Below the pieces are notes generated by a model. That model saw nothing but the letters and a program-made list of their open reading frames with translations, ran no database searches and had not been told where the DNA came from. Positions 21,905 through 61,811 of a stretch of 64,000 nt of DNA are shown here, one piece after another (positions within the stretch are counted from its first letter, which is position 1; each line of letters starts with the position of its first letter). The stretch lies in assembly GCF_035917335.1 (NCBI RefSeq), contig NZ_CP109067.1, positions 6,943,001 through 7,007,000 of the forward strand. The letters run 5' to 3'. A program made the translations under genes and the position numbers. The stretch comes from Micromonospora sp. NBC_01813. GTDB taxonomy: Bacteria > Actinomycetota > Actinomycetes > Mycobacteriales > Micromonosporaceae.

Positions 21905-24675
<2,771 letters not shown>

Positions 24676-48442: not shown

Positions 48443-48602
48443 CGATCCTCCTAGTACGGTCAGCCTCGAACGACCTTGGCATTCCGTTACCCGCCAACGC
48501 ATCTCGCCACTTGCGCTGCCGGTCGGGGGTCGGGTCGGCGGCGGCCGGGAGGCACCCAAACAGGACAGAGCAGTGCCGTACGAGCGGCCCGGGAGGCGTG
48601 TG

Positions 48603-50654
48603 TCAGTAGATGCGACGGCCGCGCGCGTCCGGGACGCCGGACTTGCGGAAGAAGTACGTGTTGATCTGATCGCGCCACTCCCGAGCTGAGCGCACCTGCT
48701 CGTCGAGACGTTCGGCAACCCGCGCGTACAGGGCTGGGTCGAGGCCGGCGTCGGCGAGCCGCTGCCACCGCTCGCGGATGGCCACCGCCTCGTCGGCCCC
48801 GGCGAAGTGGGTGTCGTAGATGTGCTGGATCACCGTCGACCCGCTGTGCAGCAGATGGCCGTACGGCACGTGGTGGAAGAAGAGCAGCAGCTCGTCGGGG
48901 CAGTCGGTGAGCGACTCGTACACGTCCGCCCAGGGTTTCGGGTACTGGCCGGCGAATCCGGTGCCGGTGGCCCGGGTCCGGTCCACGCCGACGCCGTCAC
49001 GGTCGGCGAAGTGGTACGTCCCCCACTGGGAGTACTCGTACCCGTCGACGGCAGGACCGTAGTGGTCGGCAGGGCGGACCATGAAGCCGACGCCGAGCGG
49101 GGCGGTGTACCGCTCGTAGGTGTGCCACGAGCCGTCCATCATCGCGTGCAGGGTCTGCCGCAGCTTGGCCGGATCGCCGACGGAGCCGGCCGGGAAGGTC
49201 AGGTCGATCCACTCGTCGAGCAGCACCGCCGGGTCGGTGGTCGGGTCCCAGCCGAGCCGGCCGAACGCGTACAGGTTGGCCTGGGCCAGCGGATGCCCGC
49301 ACCAGAACGGGTCGTCACCGACGTTCGAGACGGCGGCCAGGGTGCCGCCACGGGCGGCGACCGCCGCGACGGAGGAGCCCAGGTCGCCGTCGTCGTCCAG
49401 GCTGTCGCCGTCGAACCGGAAGCCGAGCACCTCACTCCACAGCGGACCGAGATAGCAGACGTGCCGCTGATGCCCGGTGTACTCCTGGGTCACCTGCAAC
49501 TCGACGGCCAGCCGGGTGGCCGGCATGGCGCCGATCACCGGCGACACCGGTTCGCGGGTCTGGAAGTCGAGCGGCCCGTACTTGACCTGCACGATCGCGT
49601 TGTCGCGGAACTGGCCGTCGAGCGGGGCGAAATGGTCGTACGCGGCCCGCGCCCGGTCGGTGGAGCGGTCCCGCCAGTCCTGCCGGTGGTCGTAGACGAA
49701 CGCCCGCCAGTGCACCACCCCGCCGTGCGGGGCGAGGGCGTCGGCGAGCATGTTCGCGCCGTCGGCGTGGTGGCGGCCGTACGCGAACGGACCGGGCTGG
49801 CCCTCCGAGTCGGCCTTCACGACGTACCCACCGAAGTCCGGCACCGCCCGATAGACCTTGGCGGTGGTGGCCGCCCACCAGTCGCGGACCGCCGGGTCGA
49901 GCGGGTCGGCGGTGGGCAGCCCGCCGAGCACCAGCGGCGCGGCGAACGTCACCGACAGGTGCAACCGGATTCCGTACGGGCGGAAGACGTCGGCGATCGT
50001 GACGACGTCGTCGAGCCGGTCGGTGAGCAGTCGGGCCTCGGTGCGTCCGACGTTGACGTTGTTGATGGTGATCGCGTTGACGCCGCTGGCGGCGAGTAGC
50101 CGGGCGTACGCGCGCAGCCGGCCGAGGTCGGTGGTGATCGCGCCGGCGCGCCAGAAGAGCGACCCGCCCGAGTAGCCCCGCTCGACCTGCCCCATCACCG
50201 GGTGGACGTCGATGTTGTCCCAGTGGTCGAGCATCCGGCGCCGCATCGCCGGCCGGTGCAGCTGGGTGGCGAGGTCGCCGCCGAACGCGGACTCGCCGAG
50301 CCGGATCAGGTGGAACAGTCCGTACAGCAGCCCGGGTGGGGCGTCGGCGGTCACGGTGGTGAGGCCACCGGCGCGGCCGATGGTGTAGCCCTCGTCGCCG
50401 AGGTCGCCAGCGGCGGCGTCGGCGACCCTGCTGGGCGCGGCGCCGGTCAGTGCCAGCAGCAGGTCCGCGTCGCCGTCGACCGACAGGCGGGTCACCGAGC
50501 CACCGAAGCTGGCGCAGGCGGCCCGCACCTCGGCATGGACGGTGTCGACAAGCAGACCGTCACCGGAGATCAGGGTGCGCCGCGATCCGATCGCGCGCAG
50601 CGCTCCGGCCGGCAGCCAGGCTGGATGAACTGTGGTCCGCAGTGCATCGCTCAC
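48603..50654 (-). CDS. Alpha-glucuronidase, glycoside hydrolase family 67
   Basis: A 683-residue cytoplasmic enzyme of normal GH67 length, without signal peptide. It removes 4-O-methyl-glucuronic acid from xylo-oligosaccharides. Typical segments: MLDHWDNIDVHPVMGQVERG at the barrel start, PDFGGYVVKADSEGQPGPF with catalytic acids, and RDNAIVQVKYGPLDFQTREP. GGAGGAG before GTG 50654 fixes the start. It completes the xylan set of this window (GH10, CE7, GH39) but stands alone, 30 kb from the transporter operon. It is divergent from the DUF456 gene. Confidence 0.95.
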   Translation of the reverse strand: MSDALRTTVHPAWLPAGALRAIGSRRTLISGDGLLVDTVHAEVRAACASFGGSVTRLSVDGDADLLLALTGAAPSRVADAAAGDLGDEGYTIGRAGGLTTVTADAPPGLLYGLFHLIRLGESAFGGDLATQLHRPAMRRRMLDHWDNIDVHPVMGQVERGYSGGSLFWRAGAITTDLGRLRAYARLLAASGVNAITINNVNVGRTEARLLTDRLDDVVTIADVFRPYGIRLHLSVTFAAPLVLGGLPTADPLDPAVRDWWAATTAKVYRAVPDFGGYVVKADSEGQPGPFAYGRHHADGANMLADALAPHGGVVHWRAFVYDHRQDWRDRSTDRARAAYDHFAPLDGQFRDNAIVQVKYGPLDFQTREPVSPVIGAMPATRLAVELQVTQEYTGHQRHVCYLGPLWSEVLGFRFDGDSLDDDGDLGSSVAAVAARGGTLAAVSNVGDDPFWCGHPLAQANLYAFGRLGWDPTTDPAVLLDEWIDLTFPAGSVGDPAKLRQTLHAMMDGSWHTYERYTAPLGVGFMVRPADHYGPAVDGYEYSQWGTYHFADRDGVGVDRTRATGTGFAGQYPKPWADVYESLTDCPDELLLFFHHVPYGHLLHSGSTVIQHIYDTHFAGADEAVAIRERWQRLADAGLDPALYARVAERLDEQVRSAREWRDQINTYFFRKSGVPDARGRRIY

Positions 50655-50762
50655 GCGATCTCCTCCCCAGGCTGAGGACATTCTTCCTGATCCGTCGATC
50701 GAGCGCAGCCTTCGGCAGCGCCCGGATTGGCCGTACTGGCGTCCGTCGGTCACCCTGTCAGG

Positions 50763-51263
50763 GTGGATCTCAACGACACGCAGTCCCTGGTCACCCTGCT
50801 CAGCGGGCTGGCCATCCTGGTCGGGCTGATTGGCGTGGTCGTGCCGATTCTGCCTGGGCTACTGCTCTGCTGGGCCGGGGTGCTCGGCTGGGCGATCTTC
50901 AGTGACGCGGGCGGCGGCAAGTGGCTGATCGTTCTGGCCGCCACCGTGGTCACCGTCGGCGGCACGGTCATCAAGTACCTGTGGCCGGGTCGGGACCTCA
51001 AACGGGCCGGCGTACCCAACCAGTCGTTGCTGATCGGTGGTGCGCTGGGGCTCGTCGGCTTCTTCGTCGTCCCGGTGCTCGGTCTGGTCATCGGCTTCGT
51101 GCTCGGGGTGTGGCTCGCCGAGCGGCTGCGGCTCGGTGACTTCGCCGCGGCCTGGCCGGCGACGAAGCGGGCGGTGCTGGCGGTCGGCTTGGCCATGCTG
51201 ATCGAGTTCACCGCCGGGCTGACCCTCGCCGGGCTGTGGCTGCTCGGTCTGTTGACGGCGTGA
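50763..51263 (+). CDS. DUF456 membrane protein
   Basis: A 166-residue membrane protein with about four to five helices (LVTLLSGLAILVGLIGVVVP, WLIVLAATVVTVGGTVIKYL and others). The conserved GVPNQSLLIGGALGLVGFFV and the small-residue-rich helix packing match DUF456. Function unknown; relatives may be channels or lipid-handling proteins. The start GTG 50763 is weakly supported. It is upstream of the metal island on the same strand, but a promoter and operator separate them. Confidence 0.82.
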   Translation: MDLNDTQSLVTLLSGLAILVGLIGVVVPILPGLLLCWAGVLGWAIFSDAGGGKWLIVLAATVVTVGGTVIKYLWPGRDLKRAGVPNQSLLIGGALGLVGFFVVPVLGLVIGFVLGVWLAERLRLGDFAAAWPATKRAVLAVGLAMLIEFTAGLTLAGLWLLGLLTA

Positions 51264-51346
51264 CCGACCGGGTCGGGATGTCGACGGTGCCGGTCTAGGA
51301 CGTGTGTCGAGCCAGACAGGGGGGACCCCTATCGCGACTAGATGAA

Positions 51347-51359
51347 AACGATTATCGTT
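51347..51359. promoter_or_regulatory. Fur/Zur-type operator 1
   Basis: AACGATTATCGTT is a perfect 13-bp palindrome 46 bases before the first anchor-repeat gene. An identical copy lies at 52854-52866. Flanking bases (ATGAA before, GGCAT after) extend the partial symmetry. Actinomycete Zur and Mur sites are AT-rich palindromes of this length in metal-uptake promoters; that this one binds Zur is inferred from the zinc-type neighbours. Confidence 0.8.
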
Positions 51360-51404
51360 GGCATCCGGTGATCCATCAGGGATCGCCGGGAAGGAGTCTG
51401 TCTC

Positions 51405-52091
51405 GTGTTGACCGCAACCCGCCGTCAGGCCACGGCTGCGCTGGTGACCGGTGCCGCGATGATCGCGGCCCTGGTCGTCTCGGCCGCTCCGGCGCAGGCC
51501 CACGGCACGACGTTGCCGGTGGTCCTCTCTGCCGGCCACGTCGATGTGATCGAGGTGGAGTACGAGGACGGCGAGCTGGAGCTCGCTGTCCACGACGACA
51601 CCGTCGAGCCCGGCGTGCACCGCCATCACGAAGACGTGATCTTCGTGGTCAAGCCCCAGGCCAAGACCACTGTCCCCGGTGACCCCGCCTTCGGCTTCCT
51701 CGGCACCGCCGGCTCGCGGGTCTGGGTTCTGCCGCAGGTGGAGAACGAGGACCTGCTCTACGCCGGCATCGCCACCGAGGAGCTGGAAGAGGGCGTCTTC
51801 GAAGGCGACTCGCTCGACCTCACCGTGCAGCAGCTGATCAGTGCCCCCAGCTCCGGCCAGGTGGCGATCTACACCGAGGACCTGTTCGGGCAGCCGACCG
51901 TGCTGGCGAACAGCCGCGACGGCCTGCCGGACGTCGTCGACCTGCCGGTCGGCGACCACCTGCACGCCAACTGGGCCTTCAGCAAGGCCGGTGTCTACCT
52001 GCTCAAGGTCAAGGCCAGCGCCACCCTGGCCGGCACCACGACCGTCGTCGAGTCCGACTCGGTCTTCCTGCGATTCGTCGTCCTGCCGTGA
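51405..52091 (+). CDS. Exported single-repeat choice-of-anchor M protein
   Basis: 228 residues. Signal peptide about 1-33 (AALVVSAAPAQA). One TIGR03769-type repeat makes up the rest: SAGHVDVIEVEYEDGELELA, VHDDTVEPGVHRHHEDVIFV, FGFLGTAGSRVWVLPQ, and the signature DHLHANWAFSKAGVYLLKVK. GHVD and HLHANW supply His/Asp that may bind metal. There is no anchor at its end, so it should be free or bound to partners. AAGGAG precedes GTG 51405, and a Zur-type palindrome lies just upstream. It is followed after 29 bases by a similar protein. Confidence 0.9.
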   Translation: MLTATRRQATAALVTGAAMIAALVVSAAPAQAHGTTLPVVLSAGHVDVIEVEYEDGELELAVHDDTVEPGVHRHHEDVIFVVKPQAKTTVPGDPAFGFLGTAGSRVWVLPQVENEDLLYAGIATEELEEGVFEGDSLDLTVQQLISAPSSGQVAIYTEDLFGQPTVLANSRDGLPDVVDLPVGDHLHANWAFSKAGVYLLKVKASATLAGTTTVVESDSVFLRFVVLP

Positions 52092-52120
52092 ACCGGGCCG
52101 GATCGGAAGGGAGCAGTGTG

Positions 52121-52777
52121 ATGAACCTCCGTACCCGCCGCTGGTCGGCCGGAGTCGCGTCGAGCGTGCTGGCCGCGGTGCTGACGCTTGCCGTGCCTGC
52201 CGCACCGGCACAGGCCGCCATCATCGAGCTGACCAGCGGTCATGTCGACGTCCTTGACGTGGACCATGTCGCCGGTGGGTCGATCGTGGTCAGGGTCGGC
52301 GACGACACCGGCTCGACCACCGTCTACCGGGATCCGTCCACCGTGGTCTTCAAGGTGCCGGCCGCCGCGAACGTCGCGGTGCCGTCCGGCTCGGCCTGGT
52401 CGTTCCTCGGCACCGCCGGCTCCGCCTACGTCCTGCCGCAGACGAACACGGCCGGTCTGCTCTGGGCCGGTTGGGACACCACCGGCGTGGCCAGTGGTGC
52501 CCTGCAGTTCAACCGGGTCGTGTTCAAGCTGACCGACGTGCAGGGGCCGGGCGGGTTCAGCGTCTTCACCGCCTCCGGCGGCACCCCCACCGTGCTGTTC
52601 GACAGCGGCAACGGCCTGCCGGACAGCCTCAACGTCAACCGCAACACCCACGCCCACCTCAACTGGGGCTTCGACGTCGCCGGCACCTACGTGGCGACCT
52701 TCGAGGTCAGTGGCGTGCGTACGTCGAACGGGCAGCCGGTGAGCAGCACCGAGGAGTTCACCTTCGAGGTCGGCTGA
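52121..52777 (+). CDS. Second exported single-repeat choice-of-anchor M protein
   Basis: 218 residues. Signal peptide to PAQA (about 33). One anchor-M repeat: SGHVDVLDVDHVAGGSIVVR, SFLGTAGSAYVLPQ, GPGGFSVFTASGG and THAHLNWGFDVAGTYVATFE. GGAAGGGAG precedes ATG 52121; GTG 52088 overlapping the previous stop is possible. It shares the operon and probably the operator of the preceding gene. A hairpin at 52792 ends the transcript. Together the two are small diffusible versions of the repeat found in the larger surface proteins downstream. Confidence 0.88.
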   Translation: MNLRTRRWSAGVASSVLAAVLTLAVPAAPAQAAIIELTSGHVDVLDVDHVAGGSIVVRVGDDTGSTTVYRDPSTVVFKVPAAANVAVPSGSAWSFLGTAGSAYVLPQTNTAGLLWAGWDTTGVASGALQFNRVVFKLTDVQGPGGFSVFTASGGTPTVLFDSGNGLPDSLNVNRNTHAHLNWGFDVAGTYVATFEVSGVRTSNGQPVSSTEEFTFEVG

Positions 52778-52791
52778 CCCTTCGGTCACCT

Positions 52792-52837
52792 CGTCCAGCC
52801 GGCGTCGATCGTCAGCAAGGTCGGCACCGGCTGGACG
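52792..52837 (+). terminator. Terminator after the two small repeat proteins
   Basis: CGTCCAGCCGG (52792-52802) pairs exactly with CCGGCTGGACG (52827-52837) around a 24-base loop. It separates the first Zur-type transcript from the second operator at 52854. Confidence 0.7.
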
Positions 52838-52853
52838 CCTAAAGCGATATGAC

Positions 52854-52866
52854 AACGATTATCGTT
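52854..52866. promoter_or_regulatory. Fur/Zur-type operator 2
   Basis: AACGATTATCGTT, the same 13-bp palindrome as at 51347, lies 51 bases upstream of the substrate-binding lipoprotein start. Two identical operators before two neighbouring transcripts argue strongly for one metalloregulator of the Fur family. Confidence 0.82.
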
Positions 52867-52916
52867 TGCGTGGTACGGTGCTGCTCGCGGAGTCGTCGAA
52901 GAGGGGTTGGTGCAGC

Positions 52917-54494
52917 GTGCGCGGCGTACGGTGGCTCATCGGGCCGACCCTGCTGGCCGCCAGCCTGACCGGCTGCGCGGCCCCACCGGCGCTGCGCGCC
53001 GACGACGACCGCGTCCAGGTCGTCACCACCACCGGCATCCTGCGCGACCTGGTCGACAACGTCGGCGGGGACCGGGTCGCGGTCACCTCCCTCGTCCCCG
53101 ACGGCGCCGACCCGCACGCCTACGAGCCATCGCTGCGCGACGTGCGCGACGTCGTCTACGCCGACGTCGCCTTCAGCAACTACCTGCTGCTGGAGGAGCA
53201 CGCCATCATCAAGGCCCTCGACGCCAACCTGCCCGATGGCGTGCCGAACATCTCGCTCGCCGAAGGCGCGGTCAAGTACGCCGCCGAGATCATCCCGCTG
53301 GTGGAGAACGTCGCGCTGGACACCATCTGGCTCGGCATGCGGGTACGCGGCACCGGCGCGACGTACGGCGCCGACCGCGCCTCCGACATCCTGCTGCACG
53401 GCACCGCGGTCACCGGCCCCGGCGCGATGACCGCCTACCTCACCGAGTCGTTCGGCAACGCGGCCATCTACCTCGACTCGTCCGACGGCTTCGACGCCGC
53501 CACCGGCTACCGGGACGACACCGCGACCCTGCCCCCCGACGCGCACACCCACATGAGCTGGGCGTTCACCGAGCCCGGCATCTACCGGCTGACCATGGCG
53601 GCCCAGCTCGCGGTCACCCCCGACAGCCGGCCGGTCCGCCTCGGCGAGCAGACCTTCACCTTCGCCGTCGGAGTCGACCCGCACAGCGTGCCGGGCATGC
53701 CCGACGCCACCGTGCTGCGCGGTGGCCACGCCGACGTGACCGTCGACCTCGACGCCGCCGCGCGCGGCGAGTCCCCGCTCTACCTGCTCGCCGACCCGCA
53801 CGGCAGCGGCGACGTCCACCAGGACGTGCACGACCCGGCGGACACGGTGATCGAGGTGCCGAACAAGGCGCTCGCCGAGGTGCCGGCCGGCCCGGCGTTC
53901 CGGTTCCTCGGCCGACCCGGCACCCAGATCCACCAGCTGCCGCAGGCAGTGCTCGGCAAACACGTGCACGGCGAGATCGACCCACACCTGTGGCAGAACG
54001 TCCGCAACGTCATCTCCTACACCGAACTGATCCGCGACACCCTGATCGGCGTCGACCCGGCCGGTGCCGTCGAGTACCGGGAGCGGGCCACCGCGTACAT
54101 CGCCGAGCTGACGGCGCTCGACGACTACGTCCGGGACACCATCGCGCAGATCCCACCCGGTCGTCGGCACCTGATCACCACCCACGACGCGTTCGGCTAC
54201 CTCGGTGCCGCGTACGACGTGCAGATCTCCGGGTTCGTCACCCCGCACCCGGCCGCCGAGCCGAGCCTGGCCGACCGGCGCCGGCTGACCGAGACGATCC
54301 GCAACCTGCGGGTGCCGGCGGTGTTCCTGGAACCCGGCCTGCGGTCCCGGTCGTCGACGCTGACCGAGCTCGCCGATGACCTCGACGTACGGGTCTGCGA
54401 GATCTACGGCGACACCTTCGACGACCGGGTGACCAACTACGTCCAGATGATGCGGTTCAACGCCGAGTCGCTCCGCGACTGCCTGGCACCATGA
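52917..54494 (+). CDS. Metal-binding lipoprotein of ABC transporter with inserted anchor-M repeat
   Basis: 525 residues, about 200 longer than ordinary ZnuA. Lipobox LTGC at Cys20. The ZnuA-like N-lobe (30-130) has VTTTGILRDLVDNVGGDRVA and His67 in DPHAYEP. The C-lobe (350-525) has His357 (IDPHLW), His423 (TTHDAFGYLG) and Asp499 (EIYGDTF), a complete 3His/1Asp site for zinc or manganese. Residues about 135-345 are anchor-M sequence in permuted order: the C-terminal half (AHTHMSWAFTEPGIYRL) comes before the N-terminal half (RGGHADVTVDLD to FLGRPGTQIHQLPQ). It is the TIGR03772 type. GTG 52917 after GAGGGG gives the signal peptide. Confidence 0.92.
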   Translation: MRGVRWLIGPTLLAASLTGCAAPPALRADDDRVQVVTTTGILRDLVDNVGGDRVAVTSLVPDGADPHAYEPSLRDVRDVVYADVAFSNYLLLEEHAIIKALDANLPDGVPNISLAEGAVKYAAEIIPLVENVALDTIWLGMRVRGTGATYGADRASDILLHGTAVTGPGAMTAYLTESFGNAAIYLDSSDGFDAATGYRDDTATLPPDAHTHMSWAFTEPGIYRLTMAAQLAVTPDSRPVRLGEQTFTFAVGVDPHSVPGMPDATVLRGGHADVTVDLDAAARGESPLYLLADPHGSGDVHQDVHDPADTVIEVPNKALAEVPAGPAFRFLGRPGTQIHQLPQAVLGKHVHGEIDPHLWQNVRNVISYTELIRDTLIGVDPAGAVEYRERATAYIAELTALDDYVRDTIAQIPPGRRHLITTHDAFGYLGAAYDVQISGFVTPHPAAEPSLADRRRLTETIRNLRVPAVFLEPGLRSRSSTLTELADDLDVRVCEIYGDTFDDRVTNYVQMMRFNAESLRDCLAP

Positions 54495-54504
54495 GGAGGC
54501 ACCA

Positions 54505-55433
54505 GTGAAGTCGATCGGCCTGTCGGTGGCCGTGTCCGCGCTGCTTGCGATGACGCTGGCGGCTCAACCCGGCTCAACCGACCCGACGTCGAACCAGCCT
54601 GACCCGGCGTTGGACCAGTCGATCGCGCCGGATCAGCCGGTCGCCGACGAACCGGCGGTGCTCGCCGCCGGCCACGTCGACCTCGGACCGCGCTACGTCG
54701 ACGACGAGTGGACCCTGCTGATCCACGACGACGCGGCACAGCCGGTGTGGCGGGACCCGGACCGGACCGTACTGCAGGTCACCGACGCCGCGCTGCAGAC
54801 CGTCCCGGACGACCCGGTGTACGGCTTCCTCGGCGTGCCGGCCGGCACCCAGGTGCACGTGGTGCCGCAGGTGCAGCACCCCGACGTGGTGTGGGTCGGC
54901 TGGAACACCCAGGACCCCCGGGTGATGCAGACCATCGACCGTGGCGTGACCCTGGAACTGGCCGATGTGGACGGGCCCGGCGACGTCACCATGTACCTGC
55001 AGGCCGGCACGTTCAGCGAGCCGCAGGTGCTGTGGCGCTCCACCGAGCCGCCCGGCCAGCCGATGTGGGTGGAGGTCAACACCCACACCCACGCCAACTG
55101 GGTGTTCACCGCCCCCGGGGTGTACCTGGTCGCGGTGCGGGTCAGCGCCGACCTGGTCGGTGGCGCACAAGTCTGGGCCACCCGGCATCTGCGGTTCGCC
55201 GTCGGCGACGCCACCAGCACCGACGACGCGCTCGCCGCCCAGCCCGGCGAGGTCGCGGCCGTGCCGCCGAGCGCCGGGCCGGACGCCGACGAGCCGGGTA
55301 GCACCGGTGGCACCGGGCCGTGGCTGGTCGTCGGCCTCGTCGTGGTCGCCCTCGGCCTGGCCGTCGCGCTGATCGTCGTGGTGCTGCGCGGCCGGGCGGT
55401 ACGCCGCCGCGTGGAGCAGGAGCGTACCCAGCC

Positions 55434-55437
<4 letters not shown>
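54505..55437 (+). CDS. Membrane-anchored choice-of-anchor M protein
   Basis: 310 residues. Signal peptide about 1-20, an acidic Pro/Asp spacer, then one anchor-M repeat (AAGHVDLGPRYVDDEWTLLI, YGFLGVPAGTQVHVVPQ, THTHANWVFTAPGVYLVAVR). The C-terminus has a Gly/Pro/Ser spacer, one membrane helix (WLVVGLVVVALGLAVALIVV) and a basic tail, without a sortase motif. GGAGG precedes GTG 54505, ten bases after the binding-protein stop. Its stop overlaps the ATPase start (GTGA). It probably holds a repeat next to the transporter on the membrane face. Confidence 0.88.
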
Positions 55438-56176
<739 letters not shown>

Positions 56177-56177
<1 letters not shown>

Positions 56178-57067
56178 TGCCGATCACCGACTTCCTCACC
56201 GATCTGGTCAACCCCGATCTCGCCTTCCTGCCGAAGGCGCTGCTGATCGCCGTCATGTCCAGTGTGGTCTGCGGCGTGGTCGGCTGCCATGTGGTGCTGC
56301 GCGGGATGGCGTTCATCGGTGACGCGGTGGCGCATGCCGTGTTCCCGGGGTTGGCGGTCGCCTTCGTGCTGCAGGGCAGTCTGGTGCTCGGCGGCGCGGT
56401 CGCCGGGATCATGACCGCGTTGCTGATCGCGCTCTTCGCCCAGCACCGGCGGGTCAAAGAGGACTCGCTGATCGGGGTCTTCTTCGTGGCCGCGTTCGCG
56501 CTCGGCATCGTGATCATCTCCCAGGCGCCCGGGTACGCCGGGTCGCTGCAGCAGTTCCTGTTCGGCTCGATCACCGGCATCCCGGACCGGGATCTCTACA
56601 CGGTCGGGTTCACCGGGCTGGCGATCCTGGCAGTGGTGTTCCTGCTGCACAAGGAGCTGGTCGCGGTCAGCCTGGACCGGGAGATGGCCCGCTCGGTCGG
56701 ACTGCCGGTGTTCTGGCTGGACATCGCGCTCTACGTCCTGGTCACCCTCGCGGTGGTGATCTCGCTGCAGACGATCGGCAACATTCTCGTACTGGCGCTG
56801 TTGATCACGCCGCCGGCCGCGGCCCGGCTGCTCACCGACCGGCTCGGGCTGATGATGCTGCTGGCGCCGCTGATCGGCGGGTGTTCAGCCCTGGTCGGGC
56901 TCTATCTGTCGTGGAGTTACGACCTGCCGGTGGGCGGGACGATCGTGCTGGTGGCGACCGCAGTGTTCCTGCTCGCCTGGGTGTTCGCGCCACGACACGG
57001 TCTGCTGGCCCGGCGCTGGCGCGACCTGACCGCCCGCCGCCGGCCGGCCGTAGCGGCAATCAAATGA
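56177..57067 (+). CDS. Permease of the anchored-repeat metal ABC transporter
   Basis: A 296-residue inner-membrane protein with eight to nine helices of the ABC-3 (ZnuB/MntB) family: VVLRGMAFIGDAVAHAVFPG near the N-terminus, GSLQQFLFGSITGIPDRDLY in the middle and ALLITPPAAARLLTDRL later. It forms the zinc or manganese channel. ATG 56177 follows the ATPase stop as TGATG. The TIGR03770 subgroup occurs in actinobacteria with anchor-repeat proteins, as here. Confidence 0.95.
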
Positions 57068-57108
57068 TCACGCCCCGCGCCACCTCGGCGCGGGCGAGGG
57101 GAGGAAAC

Positions 57109-58578
57109 ATGAGAACGACAGGTGCCCGCGGTTTCGCGGCCCTGATCGGCGCGGCGGTGGTCGCCGGTGGCGTGCTGCTCGCGCCGACCGCCGCCGCCGC
57201 CCAGGAAAAGGTGGTGCTCGCCAAGGGCCACACCGACGCCATCGACGTCCACTACCACGACGGCGAGCTGTCCCTGGAGGTACACGACGACACGGTCAGC
57301 CCATCGGTCAGCCGGGACCCGGCCGACGTGATCTTCCAGGTGCTGCCCGAGGCCGCCATGGCGGTGCCGGCCGACCCCCGGTTCGCCTTCCTCGGCCCGG
57401 CCGGATCCACGATCTGGCTGCTGCCGCTGACCCAGGACCAGAACCTGCTCTGGCCCGGCTGGAACACCACCACCCTCGGCGCCGGCACCTTCGCCGGTGA
57501 CCAGGTCCAGATCAGCCTCGTCGACGTCGCCGGTCCCGGCACCGTCTCGGTGTTCACCCAGGACAGCTTCGGCAGCCCGCTGATGAAGTTCCGCAGCGAC
57601 GACGGGCTGCCGGACACCATCGACGTGCCGATCCGCACCCACGCCCACGCCAACTGGGCGTTCAGCGCCGAAGGTGACTACACGCTGACCTTCCAGGCCG
57701 ACGCGACGCTGACCGACGGCACCACGGTCAGCACCGGACCGGTCGACTACTCGTTCGTGGTCGGCGAACTCGGCGGCACCGGCCCGGACACCGTGCTGAC
57801 CGTCAGCGGCATGGCCGACGAGTACCAGCCGGGCGACACCGTCACCCTGCAGGCGGTGCAGACCCCGCAGACCGAGCTGGACCACTACCACTGGTTCAGC
57901 CGCTGCCCCGGCTCCGACGATTTCGCCATCATCTCCGGCGAGGTCGGAGCGTCGTACAGCTTCACCGCCACCCGCGAGCTCAACGCCTGCGAGTACCAGG
58001 CGAAGCTCTACGACGACAACCACGCCGTCGTCGCCACCAGCGAAGAGGTCTGGCTCTGGGTGGCGTTCGCGCCGACCGACCCGGGCACGTCGCAGACCAT
58101 CACCGCCACGATCGACCCGACCCAGGGCGCCCTGGTGATCAGCGTCGACCCGAACGACCGCAGCGTCGTCCTGCCGCCAGCGCAGCTGTCCAGCGCCGGT
58201 GACACCTGGGAGAGCAGCGGAAGCCTGCGTCCGGTCACCGTCACCGACACCCGGGCCGGCACCCCCGGCTGGAGCGCCTCCGGTCAACTGCCGGACAACT
58301 TCACCGGGCCGGACGGCGCCACCTTCAGCTCCGGCTACCTCGGCTGGACCCCGCAGGTGGTCGACCAGTCCACCGGCCAGGGCGTCGTCGCCGGACCGGT
58401 CGTCGCGCCGTACGTCGTCGGCGTCGGCGGCGGACTCGGTGCCAGCGCCGTCCTCGGCTCGGCACCCACCGGCTCCGGCCGGGGCACCGCGACCCTCTCG
58501 GCCGGCCTGCGACTGAGCCTGCCGACCGAGACCGCACCCGGCACCTACACCGCGACCCTCACCCTCACCGCGATCTGA
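57109..58578 (+). CDS. Exported anchor-M repeat protein with WxL-like C-terminus
   Basis: 489 residues. Signal peptide about 1-33 (LLAPTAAAAQ). Residues 34-225 are an anchor-M repeat (AKGHTDAIDVHYHDGELSLE, FAFLGPAGSTIWLLPL, THAHANWAFSAEGDYTLTFQ). An Ig-like segment with a Cys pair follows (about 230-330). The last 155 residues resemble WxL-type domains: PVTVTDTRAGTPGWSASGQL, YLGWTPQVVDQ and a terminal beta strand TYTATLTLTAI. No sortase motif or helix at the end. GAGGGGAGG precedes ATG 57109. The next gene encodes a DUF916 protein, the expected WxL partner, so this protein may be held on the wall through it. Confidence 0.85.
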   Translation: MRTTGARGFAALIGAAVVAGGVLLAPTAAAAQEKVVLAKGHTDAIDVHYHDGELSLEVHDDTVSPSVSRDPADVIFQVLPEAAMAVPADPRFAFLGPAGSTIWLLPLTQDQNLLWPGWNTTTLGAGTFAGDQVQISLVDVAGPGTVSVFTQDSFGSPLMKFRSDDGLPDTIDVPIRTHAHANWAFSAEGDYTLTFQADATLTDGTTVSTGPVDYSFVVGELGGTGPDTVLTVSGMADEYQPGDTVTLQAVQTPQTELDHYHWFSRCPGSDDFAIISGEVGASYSFTATRELNACEYQAKLYDDNHAVVATSEEVWLWVAFAPTDPGTSQTITATIDPTQGALVISVDPNDRSVVLPPAQLSSAGDTWESSGSLRPVTVTDTRAGTPGWSASGQLPDNFTGPDGATFSSGYLGWTPQVVDQSTGQGVVAGPVVAPYVVGVGGGLGASAVLGSAPTGSGRGTATLSAGLRLSLPTETAPGTYTATLTLTAI

Positions 58579-58596
58579 CGATCGCGGCGAGAGGTC

Positions 58597-58635
58597 GGGC
58601 CGGGCGATGACACCGTGCCGGCCATCGCCCGGCCC
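58597..58635 (+). terminator. Hairpin between the WxL-like and DUF916 genes
   Basis: GGGCCGGGCGATG (58597-58609) pairs exactly with CATCGCCCGGCCC (58623-58635), loop 13 bases. It may partly end the ABC operon and lower expression of the two genes that follow; no U-tract is present. Confidence 0.65.
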
Positions 58636-58668
58636 TTCCATCCCTTTCGCGAACGGATCACCCCCCGC

Positions 58669-59766
58669 ATGCGTACGCCAACCGCACTGCTCGCCGGACT
58701 CCTGCTCGCCGGCATCGCGCTGACTGCGCCGGCCCCGGCGACCACCCCGGCCGCCGCACAGTCGCTCACCTGGGGCGTGGCCCCGTCCAGCCCGGACGGC
58801 CCGAACGGACGCCCGGCGTTCGAGTACAAGCTCGACCCCGGAGCCACGCTCACCGACTACGTGGCAATCACCAACCACTCCGACCGACCGATCACCCTCG
58901 ACGTGTACGCCAGCGACGCATTCACCACCGAACAGGGTGGCTTCGACCTGCTCGCCGCGACCGAGGAACCGGTCGACGTGGGCTCCTGGATCACCTTCGA
59001 GACCCGTACGCTCACCGTGCCGTCGACGTCGCGGCTGGATGTGCCGTTCAGCATCGCCATCCCCGACAACGCGACACCCGGTGACCACCCGGGCGGGATC
59101 GTCGCCTCCCTCGCCGCCACCGGCACCGACGACGAGGGCAACCAGGTGTCGGTCGACCACCGGGTCGGCTCCCGGATCTATCTGCGGGTCACCGGCGAAC
59201 TGCAACCGGTCCTCGACATCGTGGACCTGTCAGTGACCCACGATGGCAGCTGGCATCCGCTGCGCGGGGGTGCCGTCACCGCCAACTTCACCGTCCGCAA
59301 CACCGGCAACGTCCGACTGACCGGGCAACCGCAGCTTGCCGTCGACGGGCCGCTCGGGCTGGCCCGGCGCAGCGCCGTCGGTGACCAGCTGCCGGAAATC
59401 CTGCCCGGTGACAGCTACCGGACCAGTGTGCGCGTCGACGGCGTACCGCCACTGGTGCGGCTCGGGGTCGGCCTGAGCGTCGAGCCGGCCGCCGTCACCG
59501 ACGAGGTGCTCGACCCGGCACCGGCCGCCGTCACCCGCGAGGTCGACCTGTGGGCCGCGCCGTGGCCGCAACTCGTGATCCTGCTGCTGATCGGCGCGGG
59601 CACCTGGCTGGTCATCGCTGGCCGCCGGCGGCGCCGCCGGCGGCAGGCAGCGCAGCTCGAACATGCCGTGGCCGCCGCCCGCGAAGCGGGCCGGGCAGAA
59701 GGCGCCGCGCGTGCAGAAGACGGCACAGCGGTTGCCGCCCGTGAGCCCGCCCGCACCACCGACTGA
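58669..59766 (+). CDS. DUF916 (WxL-interacting-protein-like) membrane-anchored protein
   Basis: 365 residues. Signal peptide to PAAAQ (about 31). A DUF916-like domain opens SLTWGVAPSSPDGPNGRPAF and contains LTDYVAITNHSDRPITLDVY, DNATPGDHPGGIVASLAATG and VGSRIYLRVTGELQPVLDIV; a second beta domain follows. The C-terminus has a helix (LVILLLIGAGTWLVIAG) and a run of seven Arg residues, fixing it in the membrane. In Firmicutes DUF916 proteins bind WxL proteins and peptidoglycan. ATG 58669 is chosen for the signal peptide; GTG 58615 lies in the hairpin loop. Confidence 0.87.
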   Translation: MRTPTALLAGLLLAGIALTAPAPATTPAAAQSLTWGVAPSSPDGPNGRPAFEYKLDPGATLTDYVAITNHSDRPITLDVYASDAFTTEQGGFDLLAATEEPVDVGSWITFETRTLTVPSTSRLDVPFSIAIPDNATPGDHPGGIVASLAATGTDDEGNQVSVDHRVGSRIYLRVTGELQPVLDIVDLSVTHDGSWHPLRGGAVTANFTVRNTGNVRLTGQPQLAVDGPLGLARRSAVGDQLPEILPGDSYRTSVRVDGVPPLVRLGVGLSVEPAAVTDEVLDPAPAAVTREVDLWAAPWPQLVILLLIGAGTWLVIAGRRRRRRRQAAQLEHAVAAAREAGRAEGAARAEDGTAVAAREPARTTD

Positions 59767-59791
59767 GCATCAAGCCAAGGGGACAGCTCTC

Positions 59792-61360
59792 ATGATCGTC
59801 ATCAGTTCCGTACTGGCGAGACCACGACTTGCGGCAGCCGTCGCGGTGGGTGCGCTGGTCGCCGCCGCGACCGTGCCGGCGCCGGTGTCCGCGGCCCCAC
59901 CCTCGGCGGACACCGCCGCGACTGTGGCCGCGGCCGGTGCCGACCTGCTGGCCGTCGAGCTGGCCGACGGGAAGCTGTCGCTGATCGCCCGCAAGGCGTC
60001 CGTCGACCGCGACGCAGCGCCGGGCCGCAGCCTGGATCCCGCGACGGTGGTCTTCGGGCCGCAGGGCGGCGCGACGGTACGGACACCGGACCATCCGGCG
60101 TTCCAGTTCCTCGGTGGCGGCGGCCGACCGATGTGGGCGGTGACCGGCGGGGACACCGACTTCCCGTACCTGGACACCCGGGCGGTGCCCCGAGGGGCGG
60201 TGCGCGACGACACGATCGAGTTGTCGCTGGGATCGGTCGACGGGCCGGGCGGGTTCGCCGCGTACACCCTCAGTGGGCTCGGCCAGGCCGCTCCGCTGTT
60301 CGGCACGTTCGACGGGATGCCGCGCGCGGCCCGGTTGCCGGCCGCCACCCGGACCGGCGGGCTGGTCTGGCTCTTCGACGCCGCCGGCGAGTACCGGCTG
60401 ACCGTCACCGCGGCGGCGACGCTCGCCAACGGCGACGAGGCGAGAGCGCAAGCCGTCTACCAGGTACGGGTCCCGCAGCTGGGCGCAGTCGCCAGGGCAC
60501 TGCCGGATCCGGATCCGGCACCCGCGCCAGCGATCGACGTCGCGCAGCAGCAGAGCACCCTGGCCGCCGCACCTTTGACGAGCGCATCGCGGGTGGTGAT
60601 CGACGACGGCCACGTCGACATGGGTCCGCAGCTCGACGGGTCCGACCTGACGATCCTGCTCAAGGACGACACGGTCTCGCCGGCGGTGTGGCGCAACCTC
60701 TCCGATGTGGTGTTGCAGGTCAAGGACAACGCGAAGATCACCGTGCCGGACGGTGCCGAGTTCCTCGGATCCAGCGGTGACGAGGTGTGGCTGCTGCCGC
60801 AGGGTCAGCAGTCCGGGATCGTCTGGCCCGGGTGGAACACCCAGCATCCGTCCGTCGTCGCCGGCATCAGTGGGCCGGTGACCTGGACCTTCAAGGGGGT
60901 AACCGGCCCGGGGCGGTTCACGCTGTTCCTCACCGGATCGTTCGGCGAGGCCGAGGTGTTGTTCGACTCCGCCGCCGGCCTGCCGCAGCGCCTGGAGATC
61001 CCGTCGAACACGCACGCCCACGGCAACTGGGCGTTCAGCGAGCCAGGTGTCTACCGGCTGGCTTTCGAGATGTCCGGCACCACGACGACGGGTGCGACGG
61101 TGACGGACACCCGGACCCTCAACCTGGCCGTCGGTGACGGGACCGACCCGGACACCGGGTTCGGCCCAGGCTCCGCTGACGGCGCTGACGGCGCTGACGG
61201 CGCTGACGGCGGTGACGGCTCCGGCGGCGACGGCTCTGGGAGGCTGCCGCTCACCGGATCCTCGTGGCAAGTGCCGGCCACTGGAGCCGTGCTGCTGATC
61301 ACCGGCGCGTTGGTCCTGTTCGCGCTGCGGACCCGACGTTTCGATCAGTGCTCGTCGTAG
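59792..61360 (+). CDS. LPLTG-anchored protein with two anchor-M repeats
   Basis: 522 residues. Signal peptide about 1-34. Repeat 1 (about 40-230) is degenerate: AAGADLLAVELADGKLSLIA replaces GHVD and TRTGGLVWLFDAAGEYRLTV replaces HxHxNW. Repeat 2 (about 265-455) is canonical: DDGHVDMGPQLDGSDLTILL and THAHGNWAFSEPGVYRLAFE. A spacer of DGA units is followed by the sortase signal LPLTG, a helix and an Arg-rich tail, so the protein is linked to the cell wall. AGGGGA precedes ATG 59792. Its last 16 bases overlap the His-rich gene on the other strand. Confidence 0.9.
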   Translation: MIVISSVLARPRLAAAVAVGALVAAATVPAPVSAAPPSADTAATVAAAGADLLAVELADGKLSLIARKASVDRDAAPGRSLDPATVVFGPQGGATVRTPDHPAFQFLGGGGRPMWAVTGGDTDFPYLDTRAVPRGAVRDDTIELSLGSVDGPGGFAAYTLSGLGQAAPLFGTFDGMPRAARLPAATRTGGLVWLFDAAGEYRLTVTAAATLANGDEARAQAVYQVRVPQLGAVARALPDPDPAPAPAIDVAQQQSTLAAAPLTSASRVVIDDGHVDMGPQLDGSDLTILLKDDTVSPAVWRNLSDVVLQVKDNAKITVPDGAEFLGSSGDEVWLLPQGQQSGIVWPGWNTQHPSVVAGISGPVTWTFKGVTGPGRFTLFLTGSFGEAEVLFDSAAGLPQRLEIPSNTHAHGNWAFSEPGVYRLAFEMSGTTTTGATVTDTRTLNLAVGDGTDPDTGFGPGSADGADGADGADGGDGSGGDGSGRLPLTGSSWQVPATGAVLLITGALVLFALRTRRFDQCSS

Positions 61361-61638
61361 TGGTCGCCGTGGGGGGCGTGCCGGTGGCCGGCGTGCACGA
61401 AGTCCTCGTGGTCGCCGTGGGTGACGGCGTCGTGTCCGCAGTTCGGCCCGTGGGTGTGGTCGGTATGTGACTCGGTGGGGACGTGCTGGTTGACCTGGCA
61501 CTCGTCCCAGTGTCCGGAGTGCTCGTGGTGGACGTGCCCGTCGTGCAGGTAGTCGGTGTGCCCGTCGTGGGTGACCGCGGCGTGGCCGCAGGACGAGTCG
61601 TGGGTGTGCACGTGCTCGGTGTGTACGGCGTGGCTCAT
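61345..61638 (-). CDS. Very histidine-rich small protein, probable zinc buffer
   Basis: 97 residues, close to one third His, without signal peptide. Two tandem units of about 40 residues share CGHxAVTHxxHxDxxHxGHxH: SSCGHAAVTHDGHTDYLHDG and PNCGHDAVTHGDHEDFVHAG, each ending near GHWDE or GDHYDE. The composition implies binding of several zinc (or nickel, copper) ions. AGGAGA precedes ATG 61638. The promoter side has the partial palindrome ATGCT..AGCAT (61656-61679), which is not the 51347-type operator. It is convergent with the LPLTG gene. Cytoplasmic storage or chaperone function is inferred. Confidence 0.85.
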   Translation of the reverse strand: MSHAVHTEHVHTHDSSCGHAAVTHDGHTDYLHDGHVHHEHSGHWDECQVNQHVPTESHTDHTHGPNCGHDAVTHGDHEDFVHAGHRHAPHGDHYDEH

Positions 61639-61811
61639 CGAACTCTCCTAATCTCATGCTGATATTGCGATTTGAGCATAACTCATGGGTTGGTCCTGCC
61701 GGTGATCGACGTGGAGATCTCCTCGGCCAGCCACCCGCTCTGGACCGGCCGCCAGCGTTTGCTCTGGTCGGGGCGGGGTAGGACGGAATCGGTGGTCCGG
61801 AGGAGGGGGCG

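What the first reader, a model, noticed from the sequence alone, without database searches (positions are those of the whole stretch)
51300..61640. Fur/Zur-type-controlled surface relay: metal ABC importer with seven associated surface or repeat proteins and a His-rich buffer
Two identical 13-bp palindromes (AACGATTATCGTT) precede two transcripts encoding exported anchor-M proteins and an ABC-3 metal importer. Downstream lie a WxL-like protein, a DUF916 protein, an LPLTG wall protein and a protein close to one third His. Anchored-repeat ABC genes are catalogued as families (TIGR03769-03773 from memory) without a firm substrate. Operators, a complete 3His/1Asp binding site and the His-rich neighbour together point to zinc (or manganese), and the graded anchoring (free, lipid, TM, wall) suggests hand-over across the wall.
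Basis: partly seen in the sequence, partly recalled or inferred. Interest (0 to 1): 0.85.

Follow-up and report, generated by a model that had tools for sequence, protein, structure and literature searches.

The report
Zur-controlled zinc importer with surface proteins
A soil-type actinomycete carries a gene cluster for pulling in scarce zinc, with a membrane pump and several related, probably zinc-binding, surface proteins; the kind of system is already known from Corynebacterium, but I found no description of the way one of its modules is rearranged inside the pump's capture protein.

Summary
The locus is a complete "anchored-repeat" ABC importer (TIGR03770-03773 all above curated cut-offs), of the same make-up as the Zur-repressed znu cluster of Corynebacterium diphtheriae, whose ZnuE/F/G were published in 2025 as zinc-binding. 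The operators are Zur boxes: TGANAAYSRTTNTCR occurs exactly at four places in the 7.63-Mb genome (reversed control none): the two here, one before a His-loop znuA, one between a COG0523-type GTPase gene and rpmB/rpmG paralogues. Two boxes stand at the same places in 7 of 7 genomes of the genus examined. In other genera zinc-starvation genes often flank the cluster. New here: the binding protein contains one whole choice-of-anchor-M domain in circularly permuted order (53 of 53 inserts tested), where the genome's ordinary ZnuA has its His-rich loop; and the domain's HxD and HxH motifs are kept or lost together (401 of 403 domains). The relay across the wall is plausible but untested. The His-rich protein is only loosely linked. 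A relic of rpmE2 (zinc-free L31) lies beside it.

The parts
51343..51363 (+).
51405..52091 (+). A: exported single choice_anch_M protein, no anchor seen
   Evidence: NF038134 162.5 bits, cut-off 55
52121..52777 (+). B: exported single choice_anch_M protein, no anchor seen
   Evidence: NF038134 164.8 bits
52850..52870 (+). Zur box 2 (TGACAACGATTATCGTTTGCG; palindrome 52854-52866), before gene C
52917..54494 (+). C: metal-binding lipoprotein of the importer (PF01297 ZnuA family, TIGR03772), 3His+1Asp site
   Evidence: TIGR03772 786.1 bits, cut-off 350.45; PF01297; invariant ligands in 63 of 63
53310..53945 (+). insert in C: one choice_anch_M domain in circularly permuted order (C-half 53319-53669, then N-half 53712-53948 by profile match), at the place of the His-rich loop of the genome's ordinary ZnuA
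54505..55437 (+). D: choice_anch_M ectodomain with C-terminal TM (position and architecture of C. diphtheriae ZnuE)
   Evidence: NF038134 193.4 bits; a D-type gene is labelled in 79 of 80 named loci, the exception being a 3.4-kb contig
55434..56177 (+). E: ATPase
   Evidence: TIGR03771 374.3 bits, cut-off 268.8
56177..57067 (+). F: ABC-3 permease
   Evidence: TIGR03770 466.1 bits, cut-off 296.8; PF00950
57109..58578 (+). G: choice_anch_M + C-terminal, weakly WxL-like domain
   Evidence: NF038134 191.7 bits; PF13731 sub-threshold 12.7 bits
58615..59766 (+). H: WxL-interacting-protein family (DUF916/WxLIP_PGBD) with C-terminal TM; follows G in 40 of 46 cases
   Evidence: PF06030 47.6 bits
59792..61360 (+). 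I: wall protein TIGR03773, first domain without ligand motifs, second intact; LPLTG at 61244-61258
   Evidence: 370.1 bits, cut-off 190.3; four sortase matches over the cut-off in the genome
61345..61638 (-). J: His-rich protein (27 of 97 His); loosely linked neighbour
61642..61788 (+). relic of rpmE2 (zinc-free L31): internal part only, stop inside; intact divergent neighbour of J in the 4 other loci of the genus that were looked at
   Evidence: PF01197 30.7 bits, one stop

Best explanation
A Zur-repressed, high-affinity zinc uptake system of the anchored-repeat type. In zinc plenty Zn-Zur covers both boxes and blocks the A-B transcript and the C-to-I transcript. In zinc starvation the cell makes an ABC importer (C lipoprotein, E ATPase, F permease) plus a set of exported proteins that carry the same ~185-residue choice_anch_M domain with one HxD...HxH metal site: free (A, B), membrane-anchored (D), wall-sorted (I) and, with partner H, probably wall-bound without sortase (G). 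The binding lipoprotein C carries the same domain, circularly permuted, spliced into the position where ordinary ZnuA has a His-rich loop. I infer that the domains catch zinc outside and in the wall, that D and the permuted domain bring it to the 3His/1Asp site of C, and that E-F pump it in. Shown here: gene content, Zur-type operators, ligand conservation, permutation and its place, linkage to zinc-starvation genes. Inferred: zinc as the transported ion in this species (zinc uptake by the like cluster of C. diphtheriae was shown by others), the extent of the two transcripts, wall attachment of G through H, and the hand-over itself.
For: Family membership by curated cut-offs. Operators: four exact consensus sites in the genome, all at zinc genes, none for the reversed pattern; two boxes at like places in 7 of 7 genomes of the genus; box pattern with up to 2 mismatches 77 hits in 46 of 81 loci, reversed control 1 hit in 1 of 81; of the 77, 32 lie before a cluster gene and 26 more before rpmE2, COG0523 GTPase, rpmB2 or J, 19 before neither. 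Linkage within about 10 kb in 80 named loci: COG0523-type GTPase 36 (17 at 50% identity or more), rpmB2 25, rpmG2 25, rpmE2 20; at least one of them at 50% or more in 30 of 80. Ligands invariant in 63 of 63. Permutation: 53 of 53 inserts give two profile pieces in swapped order, and one contiguous match after swapping (mean best-domain score 53.1 against 100.2 bits); 78 of 81 C-labelled ORFs show the order C-half, N-half. His-loop position. HxD/HxH both present in 368, both absent in 33, discordant in 2 of 403 domains. Published: znu of C. diphtheriae is repressed by zinc and Zur, supports growth in low zinc, and ZnuE/F/G shift with zinc in thermal assays (PMC12445094, PMC6711530).
Against: No experiment exists here for this species. 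In C. diphtheriae the ZnuE His-to-Ala variant still shifted with zinc and the ZnuG one was unclear, so the HxD/HxH site is not proven as the binding site; loss of the ZnuF-445 operon did not lower peak density (it lengthened the lag), and over-production lowered growth in a pump-less strain (PMC12445094). 35 of 81 loci show no box with up to 2 mismatches to the single pattern used. The zinc-free nature of the linked ribosomal genes was not checked hit by hit. The core ABC proteins also match Mn-importer profiles.
Confidence: 0.85

Rival explanations
1. Zinc importer as above, but the surface domains are a wall-bound zinc reservoir or scavenging shield rather than a directed relay; C collects free zinc.
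For: In C. diphtheriae ZnuF/ZnuG reduce growth when the pump is absent and their loss does not lower peak density (PMC12445094, part 1 of section 4, and section 12). A and B have no visible anchor, so they could be lost to the medium. The first domain of I lacks the ligand motifs.
Against: A D-type gene (ZnuE) is labelled in 79 of 80 loci and znuE deletion impairs growth in low zinc (PMC12445094); C itself carries the same domain, which a pure store would not need. The longer lag after loss of ZnuF-445 hints at a role in uptake.
Confidence: 0.4
2. Manganese (or iron) importer under a Mur/Fur-type regulator.
For: The core ABC proteins also match Mn profiles (MntC- and MntA-type models); C. glutamicum Zur binds DNA with Zn or Mn in vitro (PMC2823685, passages). 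Five Fur-family genes in the genome.
Against: The only other exact operator matches are at a His-loop znuA and at the COG0523/rpmB/rpmG locus; third ligand His, not Glu as in MntA 5hx7; zinc-starvation genes flank the cluster in many genera; published zinc function of the like cluster.
Confidence: 0.04
3. The choice_anch_M domain is structural or adhesive and the metal motif merely stabilises it; the import function rests on C-E-F alone.
For: 27 of 38 full-length first domains of two-domain I proteins lack the motif; the ZnuE, ZnuG and IutA His-to-Ala variants were thermally less stable (PMC12445094, section 8).
Against: The motif is kept in 368 of 403 domains and lost as a unit; the His residues mattered for ZnuE and ZnuG in growth tests (PMC12445094).
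Confidence: 0.12

Closest known systems
Corynebacterium diphtheriae znu cluster (znuAECB + znuF-znuG-dip0444-dip0445), PMC12445094, PMC6711530
   Same: Binding protein, HxD/HxH membrane protein, ATPase and permease in one operon; further HxD/HxH proteins with and without sortase signal; two Zur-controlled promoters; ZnuA with the motif in reverse order.
   Different: Here one of the two promoters drives two free single-domain proteins (A, B) placed upstream; a G-H pair (weakly WxL-like / WxLIP) is added; the reverse order in ZnuA is explained here as circular permutation of a whole domain (the stem 'permut' is not in that paper's main text).
Anchored-repeat ABC transporter families TIGR03769-TIGR03773 (NCBIfam)
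   Same: All four protein models and the repeat models match above curated cut-offs.
   Different: Nothing that excludes membership; the model descriptions shown give no metal.
Streptococcal Pht proteins with AdcAII (as discussed in PMC12445094, section 12)
   Same: Surface proteins with repeated metal sites beside a zinc importer, proposed to pass zinc on.
   Different: Different domain and motif; no his-triad family among the Pfam matches of the ten proteins.
AztABC(D) of Paracoccus (AztA/B/C profiles; AztD recalled)
   Same: ABC zinc importer with an accessory zinc protein; AztC and AztB are the best non-anchored profiles for C and F.
   Different: AztD is (recalled) an unrelated chaperone fold; no link to choice_anch_M was tested.
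WxL / DUF916 surface complexes of Firmicutes (PMC10599100; only the start of the abstract seen in a search listing)
   Same: H is above cut-off for PF06030; G ends in a weakly WxL-like domain and precedes H in 40 of 46 cases.
   Different: G is below the WxL cut-off, and its cargo domain is a metal-motif domain.

Membership tests
Anchored-repeat ABC transporter (TIGR03770/03771/03772/03773) | Curated score cut-offs for permease, ATPase, binding protein and wall protein | tested here: met
   466.1/296.8, 374.3/268.8, 786.1/350.45, 370.1/190.3 bits
Anchored-repeat ABC transporter (TIGR03770/03771/03772/03773) | choice_anch_M repeats in neighbouring surface proteins | tested here: met
   NF038134 above cut-off in A, B, D, G, I and C; all 8 genome matches lie in this cluster
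Orthologue of C. diphtheriae Znu | Gene order binding protein - HxD/HxH TM protein - ATPase - permease, with Zur boxes at two promoters | tested here: met
   order of the reference from PMC6711530 Table 1 and PMC12445094
Orthologue of C. diphtheriae Znu | Zinc-dependent repression and growth in low zinc | not testable with these tools
   needs culture work
Zur regulon | Operator shared with zinc-starvation genes of the same genome | tested here: met
   4 exact sites, all at zinc genes; reversed pattern 0
Zur regulon | Zn-dependent binding of the strain's Zur | not testable with these tools
   gel shift needed
Mn-type importer binding protein | Glu as third metal ligand (recalled for PsaA/MntC; seen in the 5hx7 alignment) | tested here: not met
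   His404 invariant in 63 of 63
WxL surface complex | WxL domain in G (PF13731) | tested here: not met
   12.7 bits, cut-off 25, E 0.345; WxL not among the matches of the C-terminal part in a Pfam scan up to E 10
WxL surface complex | WxLIP/DUF916 partner (PF06030) | tested here: met
   47.6 bits, cut-off 27.3
Pht proteins | Streptococcal histidine-triad repeat | tested here: not met
   no such family among the Pfam matches of A-J at E 0.01
Sortase-sorted wall protein | LPxTG-type signal, TM, basic tail in I and a sortase in the genome | tested here: met
   LPLTG...RTRR by eye; four PF04203 matches over the cut-off

The most novel reading that the evidence does not exclude
The importer's binding protein has swapped the His-rich loop of ZnuA for a circularly permuted copy of the same zinc-binding domain that decorates the cell surface, so that a zinc ion is passed between like domains (wall protein I, G, membrane protein D, then the permuted domain of C) down to the 3His/1Asp site: a 'bucket brigade' built from one module, with permutation as the way to dock the last bucket onto the pump.
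Probability: 0.35. Interest if true: 0.7.

Novelty: new member of a known kind. Interest (0 to 1): 0.45.

Why it matters
It names zinc and Zur as metal and regulator of an importer class that occurs from Micromonospora to Streptomyces, Solirubrobacter and Microbacterium, not only in a pathogen, and it shows that its surface modules often travel with zinc-starvation ribosome genes. The circular permutation in the binding protein gives a simple structural account of the 'reverse' motif noted in C. diphtheriae ZnuA, and makes the relay question testable: remove or replace one folded domain instead of a floppy loop and measure zinc transfer.

Tried and rejected
Mur/Fur control was considered and set aside because the operator consensus has exact copies only at zinc loci. 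Scoring by offset shows a second, weaker box 6 bp on in all 14 sites (mean 9.9 of 15 against 12.8 for the main one). Part of that is self-overlap of the consensus, so a two-dimer reading is only suggestive. A WxL domain in G could not be confirmed. No solved chain matches choice_anch_M convincingly by sequence profile (best E 0.16). The simple promoter scan gave nothing at the operators. J as a fixed component was rejected: of 20 J-bearing genomes among 101, 6 have it within 10 kb of the importer, 3 elsewhere in a genome with an importer gene, 11 have no importer over the cut-off (searches compared by hand). Scanning only 330 bp before C found boxes in few loci outside the genus, so whole loci were scanned later.

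Rows dropped: 10 of 63 binding proteins were left out of the permutation test because a fixed-text search did not find the insert borders. For alignments A2 and A3 I gave 62 of 79 and 52 of 78 available locus sequences to save length. In the domain count only full-length matches were counted, 403 domains.

They added the exact count for the reversed operator pattern, the split of the 77 box hits, the D count and the identity split of the linked genes. I mended: the statement on how the consensus was chosen, the claim that gene A was seen behind the first box in all seven genomes, the wording on exceptions to the G-H pair, and the published lag phenotype, which I had left out.
Full report
WHAT IS THERE. 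The stretch 51343-61640 holds two operators, nine genes on the plus strand and one on the minus strand. Curated NCBIfam models identify the importer: binding protein TIGR03772 786 bits (cut-off 350), ATPase TIGR03771 374 (269), permease TIGR03770 466 (297), wall protein TIGR03773 370 (190). The choice_anch_M model NF038134 is above its cut-off in A, B, D, G, I and C; all 8 matches in the whole 7.63-Mb genome lie in this cluster. H belongs to PF06030, the WxL-interacting family. J has no match in either library at E 0.01, nor in Pfam at E 10.

OPERATORS. The S. coelicolor Zur consensus TGAAAATGATTTTCA (quoted in PMC2823685, passage), taken as published, with up to 3 mismatches gives 16 matches (control 1). 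Among them are site 1, position 87061 and position 6768052; I did not examine the genes behind the other 13. From the window sites and that list I then drew TGANAAYSRTTNTCR. It has exact matches at four places only: both window sites; 87061, just before a znuA with a His-rich loop, next to a run of znuB, an ArsR-type and a Fur-type gene at 83.6-85.3 kb (the stretch between was not read), which I take as znu-zur; and 6768052, between a COG0523-type GTPase gene and rpmB and rpmG paralogues without the usual second Cys pair (these names are by eye and recall). The reversed pattern has no exact match and 4 with one mismatch. The consensus was fitted to sequences that include all four sites, so it is not a blind test; but the genes behind 6768052 had not been looked at when it was drawn.

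CONSERVATION OF THE OPERATORS. In 7 of 7 genomes of the genus (this one included) two boxes with at most one mismatch stand at like places, about 1.5 kb apart, the second before C. The start of A was seen behind the first box in 5 of the 7; in G114 and G079 my motif search did not show it. In 81 loci (80 named ones plus the window) the pattern TGAWAACSGTTWTCA with up to 2 mismatches gives 77 hits in 46 loci; the reversed pattern gives 1 hit in 1 locus. With up to 3 mismatches the figures are 153 hits in 62 loci against 8 in 7. Of the 77 hits, 32 lie 60-400 bp before a cluster gene, 26 more just before rpmE2, a COG0523 GTPase gene, rpmB2 or J, and 19 before neither. 35 of 81 loci show no hit at 2 mismatches; I tried no other pattern on them.

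LINKED ZINC GENES. By tblastn a COG0523-type GTPase lies in 36 of 80 loci (17 at 50% identity or more, the weakest at 25%), rpmB2 in 25, rpmG2 in 25, rpmE2 in 20, J in 12. At least one of the first four is present at 50% or more in 30 of 80. I did not check the cysteines of each ribosomal hit, so some could be zinc-containing forms. In the window's genome the GTPase, rpmB and rpmG genes lie 0.23 Mb away under the same box.

NEIGHBOUR J AND AN L31 RELIC. In 4 other loci of the genus J faces an intact L31 paralogue without the Cys pairs (rpmE2) across a gap of about 145-170 bp; in 3 of the 4 a Zur box was found in that gap. In the window the rpmE2 start is gone and only an internal piece with a stop remains at 61642-61788 (PF01197 30.7 bits), and no box was found before J; the genome's other L31 match over the cut-off is a four-cysteine form. 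J is present in 20 of 101 family genomes: within 10 kb of the importer in 6, elsewhere in a genome with an importer gene in 3, without importer in 11. In one genome of another genus J follows an ArsR-type gene directly after the importer permease (L184). So J is a zinc-linked neighbour, not a fixed part.

THE BINDING PROTEIN. Its site residues (H48, H338, H404, D480, mature numbering) are invariant in 63 of 63 sequences, as are H191, H193, H252 and D254 of the inserted domain. In the solved Mn protein 5hx7 the third position is Glu; here it is His. NF038134 matches the insert in two pieces, profile 77-184 first and 1-73 after it. To test permutation I built a profile from 57 unpermuted domains and scored 53 inserts (10 of 63 left out because their borders were not found by a fixed-text search). 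All 53 gave two pieces, and the six printed show them in swapped order, about 84-192 and then 4-80 of 196. After exchanging the halves all 53 gave one contiguous match, best-domain mean 53.1 against 100.2 bits. In a separate scan 78 of 81 C-labelled ORFs show the order C-half, N-half; 2 show one piece and 1 shows two C-pieces. With the insert left out, C aligns with the genome's own ZnuA (32% identity over 280 positions), and the insert falls where that ZnuA has its His-rich stretch before DPHLW. The C. [quoted passage not shown] the stems 'permut' and 'insert' do not occur in its main text, and a search for 'circular permut' + 'substrate-binding protein' + 'ZnuA' found no paper in the held library. 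Searches for the family names found 3 papers, for 'anchored repeat' 9, for 'choice-of-anchor M domain' 4; of these I opened only PMC6711530, in passages. Subscription papers are not covered.

THE SURFACE DOMAINS. In 403 full-length domains of the 81 loci HxD and HxH are both present in 368, both absent in 33, discordant in 2 (Fisher p about 4e-46, which ignores shared descent). The motif-less ones are mostly the first domain of two-domain I proteins (27 of 38 full-length ones), as in this window. This supports one joint site and suggests a non-binding domain in I. A D-type gene is labelled in 79 of 80 loci. H is found in 46 of 81 loci; G precedes it on the same strand in 40 of 46, and 3 of the 6 exceptions are at the edge of the fetched locus. 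G's end is below the WxL cut-off. PMC12445094 reports that ZnuF reaches the wall without a known sortase; a G-H pair would be one way to do this here, but that is conjecture.

DISTRIBUTION. A binding protein over the TIGR03772 cut-off is found in 47 of 150 genomes of the family, 7 of 7 of the genus among them, and in 27 of 394 genomes drawn from the class; occurrence is patchy. The 80 named loci kept (of 292 relatives) include Micromonospora, Salinispora, Actinoplanes, Jiangella, Streptomyces, Actinophytocola, Lentzea, Microbacterium, Leucobacter, Solirubrobacter and Conexibacter.

MECHANISM AND RIVALS. Zinc import under Zur is well supported. Relay against reservoir is open: in C. diphtheriae znuE is needed for growth in low zinc, while ZnuF/ZnuG lower growth when the pump is gone, and loss of their operon lengthens the lag without lowering peak density (PMC12445094; read: abstract, sections 3, 8 and 12 and the first of four parts of section 4). 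The same paper could not tie zinc binding to the HxD/HxH residues in vitro. My own evidence (like domains at every station, a permuted copy on the binding protein, co-loss of the motifs) fits a relay but does not show it.

VERDICT. The finding is real, rightly read as to metal and regulator family, and a member of a known, recently characterised kind. What is new, as far as the searches named above go, is the circular permutation at the loop position, the unit behaviour of the motif, the G-H addition and the link to zinc-starvation ribosome genes.

Noticed in passing
window 61642-61788 (+): Relic of a zinc-free ribosomal protein L31 gene (rpmE2), intact beside J in the 4 other loci of the genus looked at; this genome seems to have lost the gene and the box beside it.
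   Followed up: yes
G034, G079, G093, G105 (L198, L196, L197, L194), 1.4-1.6 kb before the first box: A third box-like site (TGAAAACGGCTTCCG type, 2 mismatches) in 4 of 7 genus genomes; none at that setting in window 48501-51300. Gene behind it not determined.
   Followed up: partly
G057:C1:557594-559038 and G001:C1:2775105-2776561: Binding-protein gene split over two ORFs in two genomes; could be decay or sequencing error.
   Followed up: no
G010: Two full-length paralogues of the anchored-repeat binding protein in one genome.
   Followed up: no
window 24256-24600 (-) (L006): A further Fur-family gene lies 27 kb upstream in the window, near what looks by eye like a secreted hydrolase with a carbohydrate-binding end. 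Its targets were not examined.
   Followed up: partly
G000:C1:6803204-6803560 (L176): The genome's one above-threshold WxL match lies elsewhere and has a stop in the matched stretch.
   Followed up: no
window 61639-61700, upstream of J: A loose inverted repeat (TGCTCAAATCG...CAATATCAGCA) just before J resembles ArsR/SmtB-type sites by eye; in another genus J follows an ArsR-type gene (L184).
   Followed up: partly
19 of 77 box hits, listed: Zur-box-like sites in the named loci that stand before neither a cluster gene nor one of the four zinc genes tested; they may mark further Zur targets or be chance.
   Followed up: no
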